This document shows, in pieces, positions 642 through 9,614 of a DNA stretch of 21,927 nucleotides. Made by a program: the position numbers and the translations under genes. How positions within the stretch are numbered: position 1 is the stretch's first letter; every line of letters begins with the position of its first letter. The notes under the pieces were generated by a model. The model was not told the origin of the DNA and did no database searches. It saw only the letters and a list, made by a program, of their open reading frames with translations. Origin of the DNA: a virus; IMG/VR virus record IMGVR_UViG_3300046373_000112, positions 1 to 21,927 of that record; one strand, given 5' to 3'.

Positions 642-779
642 ATGATCTGCAATCTTTGCGAAGAAAAAGAAGCAAAGTACGTTATACGAAACATTCGCAA
701 TAACCATAAACTCAACGTTTGTACTTCATGCAGAGAAATGCTTGATAAATCAGACCCAAGTGAGGAGGTTAAGACATGA
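642..779 (+). CDS. Zinc-ribbon mini-protein, 45 aa (two CxxC)
   Basis: A textbook AAGGAGG ribosome site at about 629-635 precedes the ATG at 642. The protein has CNLC at residues 3-6 and CTSC at 27-30, about 20 residues apart. This is the classic zinc-ribbon layout, with a basic beta-strand-like stretch between (YVIRNIRNNHKLNV). The TGA at 777-779 overlaps the regulator start at 776 (ATGA), so it is probably co-translated with the ArpU-like regulator. It could be a small nucleic-acid or protein adaptor. Its functional link to the regulator is inferred from coupling only. Confidence 0.75.
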   Translation: MICNLCEEKEAKYVIRNIRNNHKLNVCTSCREMLDKSDPSEEVKT

Positions 780-1210
780 ACAACGATGAAGCCGTAGAAA
801 TACTAAAACGATTCCGAAGCTACGAATACGTAGCAATCAATTGCGGATTTATTAACGAGGAACGCATGCCAATGGTGATATCGGAACGATTCAAGTATCC
901 AAATCAATGGGACCGAAGCAGATACAACCGCATTGTAAACATTGTTCGCGGAGCTGTAGATCATGTTCTGAGTGACGAACAGCGATTAATCATCAACCGC
1001 AAGTATTTAGACCGTAACAAACTCACCTGTAAGCAGATAGCGGCCGTTATCAAGTGTGACCCTTCCACGGTATCCCGATGGCACACGGAAGCCATTAATC
1101 AGCTTGCAATCGCGCTAGGCGTGCTAGAGGACGGGGAAACAGAGTTAACTCCATTTGATCATATATTTGACCCAAATTGGTCATTTAAAGAGCCAAAAGA
1201 GACAGCTTAA
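776..1210 (+). CDS. ArpU/RinA-like late transcription regulator (sigma-70 region 4-like HTH)
   Basis: The 144-residue protein has a sigma-factor-like helix-turn-helix at about residues 66-111. DEQRLIINRKYL is followed by LTCKQIAAVIKCDPSTVSRW, the arrangement seen in ArpU, RinA and related late-gene activators of Bacillota phages. Such proteins typically switch on packaging and structural genes, and their genes usually lie just upstream of terS, as here. The length fits the family. It overlaps the preceding zinc-ribbon gene by 4 bases. The array of TGCA boxes behind the stop (1221-1244) is a natural candidate target, though that is inference. The acidic tail after residue 115 is less recognisable. 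Confidence 0.8.
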   Translation: MNNDEAVEILKRFRSYEYVAINCGFINEERMPMVISERFKYPNQWDRSRYNRIVNIVRGAVDHVLSDEQRLIINRKYLDRNKLTCKQIAAVIKCDPSTVSRWHTEAINQLAIALGVLEDGETELTPFDHIFDPNWSFKEPKETA

Positions 1211-1220
1211 GACAAAATCC

Positions 1221-1278
1221 TGCATTTTTCTGCACGCAAATGCAATAAAAAGAATGCTAGAATTGTATTATAGGGAAT
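1221..1278 (+). promoter_or_regulatory. Probable late promoter with three phased TGCA boxes
   Basis: TGCA occurs at 1221-1224, 1231-1234 and 1241-1244, exactly 10 bp apart, so all three face the same side of the helix. The outer two sit in a 7-bp inverted repeat (TGCATTT 1221-1227, AAATGCA 1238-1244). A -10-like TATTAT follows at 1266-1271, but a recognisable -35 is missing at the 17-bp position (CAATAA). This is what an activator-dependent promoter would look like, with the activator replacing the -35 contact. It lies 10 bp after the late-regulator stop codon. TTGACG at 1278 with a poor TAATTA after 16 bp is a weaker alternative. Confidence 0.5.
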
Positions 1279-1283
1279 TGACG

Positions 1284-1327
1284 CTGAGTGGATAATCGCT
1301 AATTAGTTGGCATTACAACTCACTCAG
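1284..1327 (+). repeat. Inverted repeat in the leader, CTGAGTG/CACTCAG
   Basis: Perfect 7-base arms at 1284-1290 and 1321-1327 enclose a 30-base loop that itself contains the palindrome CTAATTAG (1299-1306). If transcription starts near 1278, this stem would form at the very 5' end of the late mRNA. It could be an mRNA-protecting leader hairpin or a protein-binding site. No T-tract follows, so it is not a terminator. Confidence 0.4.
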
Positions 1328-1359
1328 TTTCCTTTAATAAATTGATGAGGATGATGAAG

Positions 1360-1593
1360 ATGGACTACACGCCAAAGGAAATAACGCAAGAAGAGATGTT
1401 AAGAGAACTTATCCGCCAAGAAATCGGAGAACACTTTCAAAAACAGGCAATGGTATCAAGCGAAAGTGATGCATTCTATCGACAACAAAGCTATATCGAA
1501 ACTCTAATAAGAGTGCAGAATGCAGACCATAACGTCCATAAGGAAATTGATGAAGCGCTTGAAAAGCTGAAAGAACTAACCTATCAAGGTTGA
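1360..1593 (+). CDS. Small hypothetical helical protein, 77 aa
   Basis: The reading frame is open from a TTG at 1342, but the ATG at 1360 is preferred because GATGAGG (1344-1350) lies 9 bases before it. ATGs at 1345, 1351 and 1354 in or near the site are worse placed. The protein is charged and almost entirely predicted helix (EEMLRELIRQEIGEHF, then HKEIDEALEKLKEL), with no cysteines or membrane segment. It is the first gene after the proposed late promoter. No family is recognised. Confidence 0.6.
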   Translation: MDYTPKEITQEEMLRELIRQEIGEHFQKQAMVSSESDAFYRQQSYIETLIRVQNADHNVHKEIDEALEKLKELTYQG

Positions 1594-1717
1594 TCATACA
1601 TACTAGGCTTACCTGGGGTGTATCCAACATAAAGCTTCTAGTAAGACCTATGCAATAGAGTCCGAAAATAATGTAGGACAAGCAGACGTGCCGTTACATA
1701 GGCAAAGGGCACACATC
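1594..1717 (+). other. Non-coding stretch with pairing potential, before a terminator
   Basis: There is no convincing ORF here. Several complementary segments can pair: CCTATG (1647-1652) with CATAGG (1697-1702), enclosing GTCC (1660-1663) with GGAC (1676-1679). A competing pair is GTGCC (1688-1692) with GGCAC (1708-1712). The stretch lies directly upstream of the hairpin terminator at 1718, so it may be a structured 3' UTR or a small RNA. No known RNA family was recognised by eye, and tRNA T-loop consensus is absent. Confidence 0.3.
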
Positions 1718-1745
1718 GACACCTTGACGGGTGTCTTTTTGTTTT
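1718..1745 (+). terminator. Intrinsic terminator
   Basis: GACACC (1718-1723) pairs with GGTGTC (1730-1735) across a 6-base loop and is followed directly by TTTTTGTTTT (1736-1745). A second short hairpin, GCATC-gca-GATGC (1746-1758), follows. It would end transcripts coming from the 1360-1593 gene, so the small genes after it need read-through or another promoter. Confidence 0.6.
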
Positions 1746-2714: not shown

Positions 2715-3125
2715 ATGGCAGTAGGCAAGTATGACACTCATGTTAAACCGAAGCTACTGCTTATCGAAGCATGGTGTAGAAACGGTTTGACTGATAAAGA
2801 AATAGCGAAGAACCTAGGCATATCCGAAGACTCATTTTACACTTACAAGAAAGAACATGCTGAGTTTTCAGAGTCCTTAAAAAACGGTAAGGAAGTAATC
2901 GATACTCAAGTTGAAAATGCTTTGCTTAAAGCAGCACTTGGATATAACTTTGAAGAAGAAGCAATGGGTAAGATGGGAGTCGAGCGATTAATCAAGTATG
3001 CTCATCCCAACACAACAGCATTAATCTTTTGGCTGAAGAATCGTAACCCGAAAGATTGGCGAGATAAGCAGGATATTGAACACAGTGGTTCATTAGGCGT
3101 TACGATTGTTGATGATATCAAATGA
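2715..3125 (+). CDS. terS: Terminase small subunit
   Basis: This is the DNA-recognition subunit of the packaging motor. It would bind the pac or cos region of the phage DNA and recruit the large subunit. Residues about 12-48 form a helix-turn-helix (LTDKEIAKNLGISEDSFYTY) preceded by an AWCRNG helix, the usual N-terminal DNA-binding domain. Residues 50-110 are helical and would give the oligomerisation core (VENALLKAALGY). NPKDWRDKQDIEHSG near the C-terminus is a very typical TerS tail. The 136-residue length is normal. GAGGTGATGAAAG precedes the ATG. The TGA overlaps the large-subunit start by 4 bases, as is common for this pair. Confidence 0.85.
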   Translation: MAVGKYDTHVKPKLLLIEAWCRNGLTDKEIAKNLGISEDSFYTYKKEHAEFSESLKNGKEVIDTQVENALLKAALGYNFEEEAMGKMGVERLIKYAHPNTTALIFWLKNRNPKDWRDKQDIEHSGSLGVTIVDDIK

Positions 3126-4453
3126 CCAATTTATCACATATCGTTGCACCTTCGTTTTATAGCATTCACAAGGACATAAAAGAAGGCAAGCACACTCACT
3201 ATTGGTTACGAGGTGGTCGAGGTTCTACCAAGTCATCATTCACAGCCATTGAGATTATATTAGGCATTATGTCGGACCCGTTAGCCAATGCGGTTGTACT
3301 GCGCAAAGTTAAGGACACGCTGAAGGAATCCGTGTTCGAGCAACTATGTTGGGCAATCGATGAATTAGGCGTAGATGATTATTGGGAAGTACCCGAAGCA
3401 AAGCTTGTGATAACTTATAAGCCAACTGGTCAAGAGATCAGATTTCGTGGAGCTGACAAACCTAAGAAGATCAAGTCCATGAAGTTCAGCCGAGGATATG
3501 CAAAATATATTTGGTATGAGGAGTTAGATGAGTTTACAGGCATGGAAGAGATACGAATGATTAATCAGTCCTTAATGCGTGGTGGCAAGAAGTTCACCGT
3601 ATTCTATTCCTACAATCCTCCTAAGAGTGCTAACAGTTGGGTAAACACAGAAGTCCAACTCACAAGAGATGACAGACTAGCACATCACAGCACCTATTTA
3701 ACCGTGGATCCCGAATGGCTTGGCAATCAATTCATTGTGGAAGCTGAACACCTTAAGCTAGTCAAGCCATTATCCTATGAGCATGAATACCTGGGCGAAG
3801 TAGTGGGAACAGGTGGAGAAATCTTCGATAACGTTCAAACAAGGGTTATCAGTGACGCTGAGATCGAAGAGTTTGAAAATGTGCGTAGAGGTATGGACTT
3901 CGGTTATTCTAGCGACCCTCTCGTTTACAACGTTATGCACTATGACCGCAAGCACAAGAGATTGTACATTTACCACGAGCTCTACAAAGTCCGCTTATCT
4001 ACACATGCGGCTTATCAACATATATCGCAAGAAAATAAGAAGAATGAGTACATTAATGCAGACTCAGCAGAGCCTAGGACCATTAGCGAGTTATTACAGT
4101 ATGGCTTAAGGGTAGGTGGAGTCAAGAAAGGTCCTGACACTGTAGAGTATGGCATCAAGTTCCTGCAAGACTTGGAAGCTATCATCATAGACGATACACG
4201 GTGCCCAGAGACAGCGAGAGAGTTCCTAACCTATGAACTAGATAAGGATGCACACGGTAATTTCAAGGCAGGCTATCCCGACAAGAACAATCACAGTATC
4301 GATGCTGTCAGATATGGTATGAACGATGAGTGTATCGACTTCATGAACAAGAAGAAGATTGACAAGTTCCCCGATACGTCAATGGAATACCGCATACAGC
4401 AGAACATTAAGAAGCTGAGCAAGCCTAAAACGAAAGGAGTACAAATGGTGTGA
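3122..4453 (+). CDS. terL: Terminase large subunit (ATPase-nuclease)
   Basis: This motor protein pumps DNA through the portal and cuts the concatemer. Walker A is GGRGSTKS at residues 31-38 and Walker B is IWYEELDE at 130-137, the E after D being the likely catalytic glutamate region. The C-terminal RNase H-like nuclease shows MDFGYSSDP (Asp259), NADSAEP (Asp314) and HSIDAVRY (Asp394), the expected three metal-binding acidic positions. At 443 aa it matches PBSX/Terminase_3-type large subunits. It overlaps terS by 4 bases and reads straight into the next small gene. The domain order is complete with no missing motif. Confidence 0.93.
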   Translation: MTNLSHIVAPSFYSIHKDIKEGKHTHYWLRGGRGSTKSSFTAIEIILGIMSDPLANAVVLRKVKDTLKESVFEQLCWAIDELGVDDYWEVPEAKLVITYKPTGQEIRFRGADKPKKIKSMKFSRGYAKYIWYEELDEFTGMEEIRMINQSLMRGGKKFTVFYSYNPPKSANSWVNTEVQLTRDDRLAHHSTYLTVDPEWLGNQFIVEAEHLKLVKPLSYEHEYLGEVVGTGGEIFDNVQTRVISDAEIEEFENVRRGMDFGYSSDPLVYNVMHYDRKHKRLYIYHELYKVRLSTHAAYQHISQENKKNEYINADSAEPRTISELLQYGLRVGGVKKGPDTVEYGIKFLQDLEAIIIDDTRCPETAREFLTYELDKDAHGNFKAGYPDKNNHSIDAVRYGMNDECIDFMNKKKIDKFPDTSMEYRIQQNIKKLSKPKTKGVQMV

Positions 4454-5219: not shown

Positions 5220-7571
5220 ATGGCGAAGGAACGAATCAACGCAAACACACAGATTGATAGCGATGTGTCGGACGTAGACCAAAAGATACAGGACTCTAAC
5301 GAATGGACGCATCGTAGGCAGATGGTCATTAACAACAACTATTACTTGGGCAACCAATGGATCACATGGGATGCTAACGCCCGTTCTGTTAGGGAAGCAC
5401 CACAGCAGCCGAACGAGGAACGCATTTCACATAATGTAATCAAGCCTCGTGTTATGACAAAGCTGTCAAAGCAGACCAAGAACCGACTTAAGTTCGATGT
5501 AGCACCGGACACCAATGATGACGAACGTATCGAAGCTGCCCAAGGTGCGACAAAGTATGTGCATTATTGGTGGGAAGAACAAGAAATGGATCTAAAGACG
5601 CGTAATATCTTTCTCAACAACAACGTCAAGGGATATTGTGCGCTTAAGATAGTGTTTGATACGGACCAGGGCGATGATATCACGCCTGACGATGATGAAA
5701 AAGAATCGCTTGGCATGGATAAGGAAGACGCTAAGCCAGTGAAAACAGGCAAGGTTACAGCTAGGGTATGCGATCCGCTCACCTTGTACATTGATCCCGC
5801 AGCTACAACAGATGATGAAATACGTTGGATCATCGAAGAGAAGCCTAAAGATGTGGATTACATTGAGCAAGAGTACGGCAAGGTGGTGCTGCCTGATCAA
5901 AACATATCCTATACGCAGAACTATGAAGCTAACTCCTACGGAGCCAGTCAGCAAGTCAAGTTGAATCAAAACATGGCTATGGTTCGTGAAATGTGGGTTG
6001 CACCTTGTAAGAAGCATCCCAAGGGATTGAAGGTTACATGCACGAGAAACGTCCTACTTGACCGTGATGATGATGCAGGAGAGATACCTTATATTATCTT
6101 TGGTGATATCCCAATTCCTTCTAGCGTGCGTTATGATGCGTTTATCAAGGATATGCTGCCGATTCAACGTAACCTTAACATTGCACTATCCATGTTCGCG
6201 ATCAACATGAAGCGAATGGGCAATAACATGTGGTTTATTCCCACGGGAAGCGGAGTAGATGAAGAAGAACTGACCAATGAGATAAGCGGATTTATCCACT
6301 ATAATGCTATGTCTGGGGCAGCACCTTCCAGACCCGAAGCGCCTGATATGCCTTCATTCTTTGACAGGTTGATTGAACACTATAACACGTTAATCGATGA
6401 TATGAGTGGCGCGAGGGAGATTTCAACGCAACGTTTGCCGCAAGGTTTGGATACAGCTTCTGGACTTGCACTTATGGTCGAGCAAGAGAATGAAAAGCTT
6501 GCCGTACCGATGAATAACTATGAGCAAGGTATGAAGAAATCACTCAATCGTGTGCTTAAGCTATTCAAAAAGCATTATACCGAGGAACGTTTAGGCCGCA
6601 TGGTGGGTGAGGACGGACAGATTGAAACCATCTCCTTTATGGGATCTGATTTAAACGGTGGCGAAGATATCCGCATAGTGCAGGGATCAAGCTTGCCTGA
6701 TATGAAGTCAGCACAGCAAGACCGCATCATGGGCATGTGGACAGCTAACATGATTGTGAATAAGCAAGGGATGCCTGATGCAGATCGAGCCATGAGAGCG
6801 CTAAGCTTAGGTGATTCAACGGTACTACTGGAACAAAATGAATTGGATGAAGACAAAGCCAAGATGGAGAATCACTTCTTTGGTGAAATGCTAAATAATC
6901 CTGATACCTTCAAACAATACAGTGAGTACATTCAAGCCAAACAAAAAGCTGATCAGATCAATCAAGCGATTCAGCAGCATGAACAAGCTTCTCAGATACA
7001 ACCTCACGAAATGCAACAGATCATGGAGCCGATGCCCAAAGCGCCGAAGGGTATACCATTGGTTCGCGACTTCCAAGATCATGCGGTACATATTTACAAT
7101 CATAACAACTTCCGAAAGAGTGACGGTTACGATGATTTACCCGATGAAATGCAACAATTAGTGGATGTACATGTGCGAGAACATGAACAAATGATGCAAG
7201 GTGCACCGAATCCAGAAGCACAGGCTATGCAACAGGAAAATGATCTGAAACAACAACAGTTACAGTTGCAGCAATCCAAGCAAGAGCAGGATGCACAATT
7301 AGCAGCAGCCAAGTTAGAAGCAGATAAAGAAAAAACGAAAGCGCAATTGGTTCATACAGCCGTTACAGCACAGGGTAACAATGACCATAAGCTTATGACT
7401 AGTGTTCTATTGGCTGAGCAATCGCATAAACACAACATGGAACACAGCCTTACTACAAGCGCTGTAGGACATGCACAAGGAAAGGAAACGTCATACATCA
7501 GTCATGGACAGCAGATGCAGAGGGATAAGCAGAATAACAAAGTAAAACAAAAGCGAGCTGGACGTAAGTAG
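5220..7571 (+). CDS. Portal protein, P22 gp1-like
   Basis: This is the dodecameric ring at one head vertex through which DNA enters and leaves. The product has 783 residues, close to the roughly 725 of P22 gp1 and much longer than siphovirus portals. The N-terminus (WTHRRQMVINNNYYLGNQW, then ISHNVIKPRVMTKLSKQTKNR) is the conserved opening of the P22-type portal family. The C-terminal third is extremely glutamine-rich and helical (about residues 570-715), which fits a barrel-like extension reaching into the head. It follows the terminases and precedes the scaffold, the standard order. AAAGGGGTG provides the ribosome site. The stop codon lies in the loop of a strong hairpin. Confidence 0.85.
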   Translation: MAKERINANTQIDSDVSDVDQKIQDSNEWTHRRQMVINNNYYLGNQWITWDANARSVREAPQQPNEERISHNVIKPRVMTKLSKQTKNRLKFDVAPDTNDDERIEAAQGATKYVHYWWEEQEMDLKTRNIFLNNNVKGYCALKIVFDTDQGDDITPDDDEKESLGMDKEDAKPVKTGKVTARVCDPLTLYIDPAATTDDEIRWIIEEKPKDVDYIEQEYGKVVLPDQNISYTQNYEANSYGASQQVKLNQNMAMVREMWVAPCKKHPKGLKVTCTRNVLLDRDDDAGEIPYIIFGDIPIPSSVRYDAFIKDMLPIQRNLNIALSMFAINMKRMGNNMWFIPTGSGVDEEELTNEISGFIHYNAMSGAAPSRPEAPDMPSFFDRLIEHYNTLIDDMSGAREISTQRLPQGLDTASGLALMVEQENEKLAVPMNNYEQGMKKSLNRVLKLFKKHYTEERLGRMVGEDGQIETISFMGSDLNGGEDIRIVQGSSLPDMKSAQQDRIMGMWTANMIVNKQGMPDADRAMRALSLGDSTVLLEQNELDEDKAKMENHFFGEMLNNPDTFKQYSEYIQAKQKADQINQAIQQHEQASQIQPHEMQQIMEPMPKAPKGIPLVRDFQDHAVHIYNHNNFRKSDGYDDLPDEMQQLVDVHVREHEQMMQGAPNPEAQAMQQENDLKQQQLQLQQSKQEQDAQLAAAKLEADKEKTKAQLVHTAVTAQGNNDHKLMTSVLLAEQSHKHNMEHSLTTSAVGHAQGKETSYISHGQQMQRDKQNNKVKQKRAGRK

Positions 7572-7585
7572 TAAGTCTTACGTCC
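7560..7585 (+). repeat. Strong hairpin spanning the portal stop codon
   Basis: GGACGTAAG (7560-7568) is the perfect reverse complement of CTTACGTCC (7577-7585), giving a 9-bp stem with an 8-base loop that contains the portal TAG (7569-7571). No T-tract follows, so it is not an ordinary terminator. A ribosome finishing the portal gene would open it. It could be an RNA processing, stability or coupling element that sets scaffold and coat output apart from portal. Confidence 0.6.
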
Positions 7586-7610
7586 TACAAATCTTCGGGC
7601 GTTGAATTTA

Positions 7611-7629
7611 ATCATGGCCGCCGCATGAT
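7611..7629 (+). repeat. Small inverted repeat just before the scaffold ribosome site
   Basis: ATCATG (7611-7616) and CATGAT (7624-7629) flank a 7-base GC-rich loop. The GGGAGGA ribosome site of the scaffold gene begins directly after the second arm. The stem would leave the site exposed; whether it is regulatory is unknown. Confidence 0.35.
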
Positions 7630-7643
7630 GGGAGGATTTACAA

Positions 7644-8420
7644 ATGAATAAATTTAGAATGTATCCCCTCTACGAGATAGACGGGGCTATTGGTGCTGAA
7701 TCAAGCATCGAACAGGTCGCACCTGATGAATCACAAGTTATTGAACCGGGCGTTGAAAAAGAGGTTGTCGCCGAACCTAATAACTTCGAAAAAGCATTTG
7801 CCAAGCGTTTAGCTGCCAAGGAAGCTGAATGGGAAGCAAAGAACAGCGAGAAGTACAAAGACTATGAAACAAATCAAAAGGCAGCACAGTTCCTACAGAA
7901 GCGTTACAACATCAGTGATGCCCAAGCGTTAAGAGAGCAAATTGAATTAGCCGACTTACAAGACAGAGCAGAGGAACAAAACATTACGCCTGAGATGCAA
8001 AGGCGTTTGGATGCACTCGAAGAAAAGGCCGCACTGGCCGATAAGTTCCAACAAGAGCAAGAACAGCAAAAACAGTATCAAACATTCCGCAGCAACTTGG
8101 ACAAGTTCGCATCCGAGAAGCAAGCCAGCGCCGATGAGCTACATCAGTACATGTTCGACAATCAATTTCCACCTGAGAAGATGGAACTAGCTTACAAGAC
8201 GATGCAAGCGGACAAGGTGCTTGAAGAAAAGGCAGCGTTTGAAGCCAACAAGGAACAATTCAAAAAGGACTCCGTTAAGGAGTATTTAGACAGCAAGAAA
8301 GCGCCGAAGGCAGAAGGAAAAGGTGCAGCAGGTACACTTGGACAAGGGCCGCCAGGATCATGGCAAGCCGCAGATGCCCGATTCAAGGCAAGAATCGAAG
8401 CGGCAAACAAACCAGTTTAG
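7644..8420 (+). CDS. Capsid scaffolding protein
   Basis: Scaffold proteins sit inside the procapsid, direct coat assembly and then leave. The evidence is position (between portal and coat), size (258 aa; P22 gp8 is about 303), and composition. It has a disordered acidic start (residues 15-45), then long charged helices rich in E, K, Q and A (about 46-210). After a flexible KAPKAEGKGAAGTLGQGPPG linker it ends in a basic amphipathic helix (WQAADARFKARIEAANK, 240-256), like the coat-binding C-terminal helix of known scaffolds. It has no cysteines. GGGAGGA precedes the ATG. The TAG stop is part of the next ribosome site (TAGGGAG). Confidence 0.8.
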   Translation: MNKFRMYPLYEIDGAIGAESSIEQVAPDESQVIEPGVEKEVVAEPNNFEKAFAKRLAAKEAEWEAKNSEKYKDYETNQKAAQFLQKRYNISDAQALREQIELADLQDRAEEQNITPEMQRRLDALEEKAALADKFQQEQEQQKQYQTFRSNLDKFASEKQASADELHQYMFDNQFPPEKMELAYKTMQADKVLEEKAAFEANKEQFKKDSVKEYLDSKKAPKAEGKGAAGTLGQGPPGSWQAADARFKARIEAANKPV

Positions 8421-8432
8421 GGAGATGAAAGC

Positions 8433-9614
8433 ATGGGAGCAACATTAACAACATTCGCAGACGCTTTAAAAACAGATTACTTGCCCGAGATTCAAGAACA
8501 GGTGAAACAATCGAATTACGTGTACAGCAAAATCAAAGCGAAAGCTGAGCAAATTGACGGAGACGGTAAGAACTTCTCCATCACGCATCACATGGGGCGT
8601 AACTCTGGCGTAGGCTCAGGCACAGAGGCAGGAACGCTACCAACCGCAGGAAACCAAGCTTACAAGGCTTCCACAGGTAATGTGGCGTACATTCATGGGC
8701 GATTACAAGTCACAAATGCCATGATTCAATCATCAAAGAACAATTCAACCTCTTACATCCGCGCTTTATCGTCTGAGGTTAAAGGCTTGACAACTGACCT
8801 TAAGCGGTACATCGCACGCGCAACGTTCGGTGATGGCACAGGTAAAATCGCACAATGCGGCGTATCAACAACAACAAACATTATTAATGTGGACTCAGCC
8901 CGTTCGTTTTCGATTGGACAGATTATCGATATCTGTTCTAATGTTCCTGCTGTTACCACTCCAGCAAGAACAATCACAGCGGTAAACATCCCAGGTAAAA
9001 CCATCACAATCAATGGTGCGGCTGTAACCACAGCTGTGACAGACTTTATCGTTCTCACAAATACGTTGAACACGGATCCTATGGGATTAGCTGGAATTAT
9101 CTCAGCTACAAGCACACTTCAAGGTTTGGCTCCTGCAACTTACCCGTGGTGGACTGCTGTAGACTTGAACAACGCAGGAACAAACCGCGCTATATCTGAC
9201 GCATTACTTCGCTTATTAGTAGATCAAATCGGAATGGTGTCCGATGAAGATGTGACATGGTTGATTACCACTCATGGCGTAAGGGCAGCGTATGAAGCGC
9301 TTCTGACCGTAAATAAAAGATATACCAACGTCATGGAGCTAGAGGGTGGTTACAAAGCACTAGACTTTGACGGAATGCCTTTGATGGTTGATCGTGATAT
9401 GGTGAATAACACCGTATGGGCAGGAAATTGGGAGGATCTTGGATTGTATTACACATCCGAGCTCAACTTCATGGAGGAAGATGGAAGTATGTTTAGTCGT
9501 GTGGCTAACCTTCCAGTCTATGAGGCGACCGCCTTTTGCTACGAAACAATGATTTGCCAAGCACGCAATGGATTCGGGAGACTAGCCGATATAACAATGG
9601 CAAGTGGATATTAA
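8433..9614 (+). CDS. Major capsid protein (HK97 fold expected)
   Basis: This is the 393-residue shell protein, immediately after the scaffold with TAGGGAGATGAAAGC as ribosome site. The opening ([20 protein letters not shown]) and the region around residues 42-100 ([20 protein letters not shown]) are typical of P22-coat-like or N4-gp56-like major capsid proteins. An all-beta segment at about residues 143-210 ([31 protein letters not shown]) reads as an inserted beta-barrel domain, comparable in role to the P22 I-domain. The C-terminus is hydrophobic and aromatic. A strong terminator follows directly, as expected for the most abundant product. Exact family assignment is uncertain. Confidence 0.85.

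What the first reader, a model, noticed from the sequence alone, without database searches (positions are those of the whole stretch)
1221..1278. Three TGCA boxes at exact 10-bp spacing before a -35-less promoter
TGCA at 1221, 1231 and 1241 lies 10 bp after the late-regulator stop, with TATTAT at 1266 and no good -35. Helical phasing suggests a cooperative binding site, and the placement suggests the ArpU-like protein binds next to its own gene to switch on late transcription. I know of no described operator with this layout for the family.
Basis: partly seen in the sequence, partly recalled or inferred. Interest (0 to 1): 0.6.

Follow-up and report, generated by a model that had tools for sequence, protein, structure and literature searches.

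The report
Phased activator boxes before late promoter
Right after the gene for a small DNA-binding protein, this phage carries three identical 4-letter boxes spaced one DNA turn apart in front of a weak promoter, and dozens of related prophages show the same arrangement with boxes that change in step with the protein's DNA-reading helix, so it is very probably the switch for late genes, of a kind already known.

Summary
In detail: TGCA at 1221, 1231 and 1241, starting 10 bp after the stop of a 144-aa HTH protein, then TATTAT at 1266 and no -35. Alone it is modestly significant. No close homologue of the protein was found, but relatives sharing its HTH (E 1.4e-8, HTH only) were. In 60 non-redundant regulators, three-unit repeats around the stop codon peak sharply at period 10 (40 of 60, plus 6 at period 11); control ORF ends give 9% at period 10. 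Several classes carry TGCA itself. Modal box-to-(-10) spacing matches the window (25 bp). Box sequence tracks the recognition helix after the rest of the protein is controlled for (partial Mantel p 0.0005). So the protein very probably binds the boxes and activates the late promoter. The claim that no such operator is known is wrong: TP901-1 Alt and phi13 Ltr have direct-repeat operators, and A118 and phi11 show the same layout. This is a new member of a known kind. Unexpected extra: relatives carry an intrinsic terminator just after the promoter, and the window has one at 1718, before terS; antitermination is possible but untested.

The parts
776..1210 (+). 144-aa late-regulator-like protein with C-terminal HTH (DPSTVSRWHT recognition helix)
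   Evidence: ORF; phrog_36 transcriptional regulator 1.3e-9; HMM of 48 relatives built without it hits only this window ORF, E 1.4e-8, residues 58-111
1221..1224 (+). box 1, TGCA
   Evidence: -45 from the start of the -10
1231..1234 (+). box 2, TGCA
   Evidence: -35 from the start of the -10
1241..1244 (+). box 3, TGCA
   Evidence: -25 from the start of the -10
1266..1271 (+). probable -10 (TATTAT), no -35; predicted start about 1278
   Evidence: 25 bp from the last box, the modal register of relatives
1255..1263 (+). competing extended -10, TGCTAGAAT, start about 1270
   Evidence: sequence; 17 bp from the last box, near the second register of 18-20 bp seen in some relatives
1284..1327 (+). 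leader hairpin followed by TTTCCTTT
   Evidence: MFE -13.2 kcal/mol; z-score -1.8 for 1278-1360; similar distance from the stop as terminator hairpins of relatives
1342..1593 (+). small ORF of up to 83 aa, first gene after the promoter, function unknown
   Evidence: no family match above cut-off
1718..1745 (+). intrinsic-terminator-like stem-loop plus T tract, between promoter and terS
   Evidence: only one found; shuffles mean 2.0
2715..3125 (+). terminase small subunit, start of the packaging genes
   Evidence: phrog_309, 2.4e-55
3122..4453 (+). terminase large subunit
   Evidence: Terminase_3, 2.4e-36

Best explanation
The three TGCA boxes are the operator of the phage's late promoter. The 144-aa protein encoded just upstream binds them as direct repeats, probably one HTH per box, so that 10-bp spacing puts neighbouring molecules on the same face of the helix. 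The last box ends where a -35 hexamer would lie, so the bound protein replaces the missing -35 contact and recruits or holds RNA polymerase at TATTAT (1266). This switches on the packaging and head genes from about 1278. Shown by sequence: box positions, spacing, absent -35, conservation of the layout, helix-box covariation. Inferred: binding, cooperativity, polymerase recruitment, start site, and readthrough of the terminator at 1718.
For: Relatives of phi1605 and others have boxes at exactly 10-bp steps at the regulator's stop, then a -10. Boxes relative to the -10: window -45/-35/-25; TGTCC class -45/-35/-25; L079 TGCA -54/-45/-35/-25; AGCA class -44/-34/-24. Best period is 10 in 40 of 60 and 11 in 6 of 60 non-redundant loci; control ORF ends 8.7%; high period-10 score in 32 of 60 regulators vs 2.1% of 381 controls. 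Box similarity follows recognition-helix similarity with the rest of the protein controlled (partial Mantel r 0.35, p 0.0005); the reverse is not significant (p 0.16). Window protein is homologous in the HTH. Published analogues: Alt and phi13 Ltr.
Against: No close homologue of this regulator was found, so the window's boxes could not be tested for conservation in near relatives. Homology covers about 54 HTH residues only. Period 10 in the window alone is weak (p 0.04). A second -10 (1255-1263) fits nearly as well. Two relatives (L092, L117) and several Clostridia loci use a shorter register. An intrinsic terminator at 1718 separates the promoter from terS. The 85% redundancy cut does not remove all shared ancestry.
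Confidence: 0.75

Rival explanations
1. Promoter-loaded antitermination: the regulator binds the boxes and modifies RNA polymerase at the promoter so that it reads through intrinsic terminators downstream, as lambda Q and AlpA do, rather than (or besides) activating initiation.
For: Terminator-like hairpins lie 40-260 bp after the regulator's stop in 39 of 59 loci vs 13 of 286 controls, and in 16 of 24 vs 2 of 31 when both have non-coding DNA after the stop. The window has a hairpin at 1284-1327 in the matching place and a terminator at 1718-1735 before terS. [quoted passage not shown]
Against: AlpA and Q sites lie between -10 and -35, whereas these boxes lie further upstream. The window's first hairpin has a broken T tract. 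The terminators may simply end the early transcript. phi13 Ltr data are reported as activation.
Confidence: 0.15
2. Negative autoregulation: the boxes are an operator at which the protein represses, or ends, its own early transcription.
For: Boxes abut the regulator gene and in some relatives overlap its last codons. TGCATTT-N10-AAATGCA is also an inverted repeat, as a dimeric repressor would use.
Against: Boxes are followed by a -10 pointing into the late genes. In relatives the boxes are non-palindromic direct repeats (TGTCC, AGCAC), so the palindrome follows largely from TGCA being self-complementary.
Confidence: 0.05
3. A host or other phage protein binds the boxes, or the triple is a chance pattern in AT-rich intergenic DNA.
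For: Window-only statistics are modest.
Against: Helix-box covariation and the shared layout and register in relatives.
Confidence: 0.05

Closest known systems
Lactococcus phage TP901-1 Alt and its late promoter
   Same: Small regulator, direct repeats after its stop codon, TATTAT with no clear -35; late gene activation.
   Different: 11-bp step with CACGAAA boxes; published as four imperfect repeats at -76 to -32; no sequence similarity shown to the window protein.
Staphylococcus phage phi13 Ltr and P23
   Same: Regulator gene next to the late promoter; repeats required for activation.
   Different: 18-bp repeats inside the end of the gene; best periods 9/18, not 10.
phi11 RinA and Listeria A118 gp66 (by position probably LlgA)
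   Same: Two TGGCA(G/C) boxes 11 bp apart straight after the stop, -10 27 bp from the last box.
   Different: Two clear boxes and 11-bp step. Window is below the RinA family cut-off.
Erysipelothrix phage phi1605 regulator and relatives in IMG/VR and Clostridia prophages
   Same: Same HTH with RWH motif, 10-bp step, TGCA core in several classes, 25-bp register in most classes.
   Different: About 22% identity overall; boxes usually TGCAAC, and the third box is degenerate in the TGCAAC class.
AlpA / lambda Q antiterminators
   Same: Site in the promoter plus a terminator shortly downstream.
   Different: Site lies between -10 and -35; no homology tested or claimed.

Membership tests
Direct-repeat late activators (Ltr/Alt/RinA kind) | Small (about 130-145 aa) regulator gene at the end of early genes, directly before its promoter and the packaging genes | tested here: met
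   144 aa, then promoter, terS, terL, portal on one strand
Direct-repeat late activators (Ltr/Alt/RinA kind) | Direct repeats upstream of a -10 in the target promoter | tested here: met
   Three boxes at 10-bp steps, TATTAT 25 bp from the last
Direct-repeat late activators (Ltr/Alt/RinA kind) | Regulator binds the repeats and is required for late transcription | not testable with these tools
   Indirect support only: helix-box covariation
ArpU family (TIGR01637) | Score above the curated cut-off | tested here: not met
   18.2 vs 43.1 bits
RinA family (TIGR01636) | Score above the curated cut-off | tested here: not met
   23.4 vs 31.9 bits
phi1605-type RWH regulators | HTH homology with the R-x-H motif | tested here: met
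   E 1.4e-8 for residues 58-111, RWH present
phi1605-type RWH regulators | Shared N-terminal region | tested here: inconclusive
   Alignment outside the HTH is unconvincing
phi1605-type RWH regulators | Boxes at 10-bp steps after the stop | tested here: met
Q/AlpA-type antiterminator | Binding site between -10 and -35 | tested here: not met
   Boxes at -45 to -22 from the start of the -10
Q/AlpA-type antiterminator | Intrinsic terminator between promoter and target genes | tested here: met
   1718-1735; weaker hairpin 1284-1327

The most novel reading that the evidence does not exclude
Phased-box late regulators of low-GC Gram-positive phages act, at least partly, as promoter-loaded antiterminators: promoter and terminator are coupled in the leader as at lambda pR'-tR', and box arrays load the factor. 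The box sequences also follow a readable helix-to-box code across the superfamily.
Probability: 0.15. Interest if true: 0.75.

Novelty: new member of a known kind. Interest (0 to 1): 0.45.

Why it matters
It identifies the probable late switch of an otherwise unplaced phage. It also shows that operators of this regulator superfamily can be read from sequence alone: 10- or 11-bp phased boxes at the regulator's stop codon, with box letters that track the recognition helix. That gives testable operator predictions for many unstudied prophages. The recurrent leader terminator raises a concrete question of activation versus antitermination.

Tried and rejected
Close homologues of the 144-aa protein: none in viral contigs, genome contigs or phages; at E up to 10 only weak hits, one of which (phi1605, E 0.06) proved useful. 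Major head protein scan: no loci in viral contigs. Phages sharing TerS: no homologous regulator upstream. Search of 299 Clostridia-type genomes with the window protein: mostly sigma factors. Rfam: nothing. tRNAs: none. Two-mismatch TGCA search: not enriched. I first took the 25-bp register as exclusive; one search shows a second register of 18-20 bp, so TAGAAT at 1258 is not excluded. The key papers of Quiles-Puchalt 2013, Brondsted 2001 and Pedersen 2006 could not be read (the first is not held; the others were not looked up); their content is taken from PMC13123087.

Full report
What was checked. The window is a 21,927-base IMG/VR record. TGCA lies at 1221, 1231 and 1241, 10 bp after the stop (1208-1210) of a 144-aa ORF, with TATTAT at 1266 and no hexamer near -35 better than 2 of 6. 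Exact triples turned up in 1 of 300 shuffles of the whole window, and any 4-mer tripled at 10-bp steps in 0.3% of shuffles of the 75 bp after the stop. With two mismatches allowed there is no enrichment, and by a broader score the region alone reaches only p 0.04 at period 10.

The protein. It matches phrog_36 (transcriptional regulator, 1.3e-9) and generic sigma-70-type HTH models. It falls well under the ArpU and RinA cut-offs. Pattern scans of viral and bacterial collections and tblastn of phages gave no close homologue. A weak hit, Erysipelothrix phage phi1605, shares the C-terminal motif TVxRWHxxAIN, and an alignment with it opened the wider family. A profile of 48 relatives built without the window protein finds only that ORF among the window's ORFs, E 1.4e-8, over residues 58-111. 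Homology is therefore shown for the HTH, not the N-terminus.

Conservation of the layout. In the phi1605-type loci the DNA straight after the regulator's stop carries boxes at exactly 10-bp steps, then a -10 such as TATAATCAG. One class has the triple TGCA itself (L056: TTTGCAACAC x2, TTTGCAACAT). Anchored on the -10, boxes start at -45/-35/-25 in the window, in the TGTCC class and in the four-box locus L079 (also -54), at -44/-34/-24 for the AGCA core, and at -54/-45/-35 in the TGCAAC class, whose nearest box is degenerate. Exceptions are L092 and L117. Further Clostridia loci also have 10-bp boxes, often overlapping the last codons of the regulator, for example ATGTCAGTAA repeats in L203 and AAAAGCRACT repeats in L207; their distance to the -10 falls into two groups, about 25 and 18-20 bp. 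A -10-like hexamer at a fixed position is expected in about 1.5% of shuffles, so the window's 25 bp is supportive, but the extended -10 TGCTAGAAT (1255-1263) remains a competitor.

Statistics. In 60 regulators under 85% identity, the best three-unit period from 8 to 22 is 10 in 40 and 11 in 6. Among 381 control ORF ends from the same loci period 10 wins in 8.7%, and a period-10 score of 11.5 or more is found in 2.1% against 32 of 60 regulators. A few of the 60 are probably not family members, which weakens rather than creates the signal.

Who reads the boxes. Box letters change with the recognition helix: DRTTVYRWHN with TGCAAC, DKSTVRRWHG with AGCAC/AGCAG, DSRTVRRWHG with TGTCC, DRSTVFRIHG with GCGAC, DPRTVFRLHG with TGTCAG. 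In 33 loci, helix similarity predicts box similarity after controlling for the rest of the protein (partial Mantel r 0.35, p 0.0005), while the rest of the protein does not after controlling for the helix (p 0.16). This is the best evidence that the neighbouring regulator binds the boxes. Shared ancestry is only partly controlled.

Mechanism. The last box ends where a -35 hexamer would begin, and no -35 exists, so the simplest reading is an activator array on one face of the helix that supplies the missing contact. Direct orientation is inferred from relatives, whose boxes are mostly not palindromes; the inverted-repeat look of TGCATTT-N10-AAATGCA follows largely from TGCA being self-complementary. 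Binding, cooperativity and start site are inferred.

A complication. In the window an intrinsic terminator at 1718-1735 lies between this promoter and terS at 2715, and a hairpin with a broken T tract lies at 1284-1327. In relatives a strong terminator-like hairpin follows the promoter in 39 of 59 loci against 13 of 286 control ORF ends, and in 16 of 24 against 2 of 31 with matched non-coding downstream DNA. This recalls promoter-terminator pairs of lambda Q and AlpA (PMC7969949). It may also just be the end of the early transcript. The site lies further upstream than Q or AlpA sites, so I keep this as a rival at 0.15.

Comparison with the known. PMC13123087 reports that TP901-1 Alt binds four imperfect direct repeats at -76 to -32, that phi13 Ltr needs its repeats, and that earlier work generally found four imperfect repeats for Ltr proteins. 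Sequence after Alt, phi11 RinA and A118 gp66 shows 11-bp-spaced boxes. What I did not find described in the papers searched is the 10-bp subclass and the helix-box covariation; the original operator papers were not read.

Noticed in passing
L014-L103, L194-L223 (about +50 to +180 after regulator stop): Intrinsic-terminator-like hairpins (AGCCTTGTGGG...CCCACAGGGCTTTTCTTATGCCC) recur just downstream of the late promoter in most relatives, 39 of 59 vs 13 of 286 controls.
   Followed up: partly
window 1594-1745: Structured non-coding stretch before the terminator (z-score -1.8), no Rfam match; role unknown.
   Followed up: partly
window 5220-9614: P22-like portal (PF16510) together with a major head protein of phrog_14242 whose nearest phage records infect Actinobacteria (Microbacterium, Arthrobacter), about 27-31% identity.
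   Followed up: no
L203, L205, L207, L223 at the regulator stop codon: Operator boxes run into the regulator's last codons and include its stop codon, so coding and operator sequence overlap.
   Followed up: partly
L117 after stop: Perfect TGAGCAGAAA repeats at 10-bp step, but -10 nearer than in most relatives.
   Followed up: no
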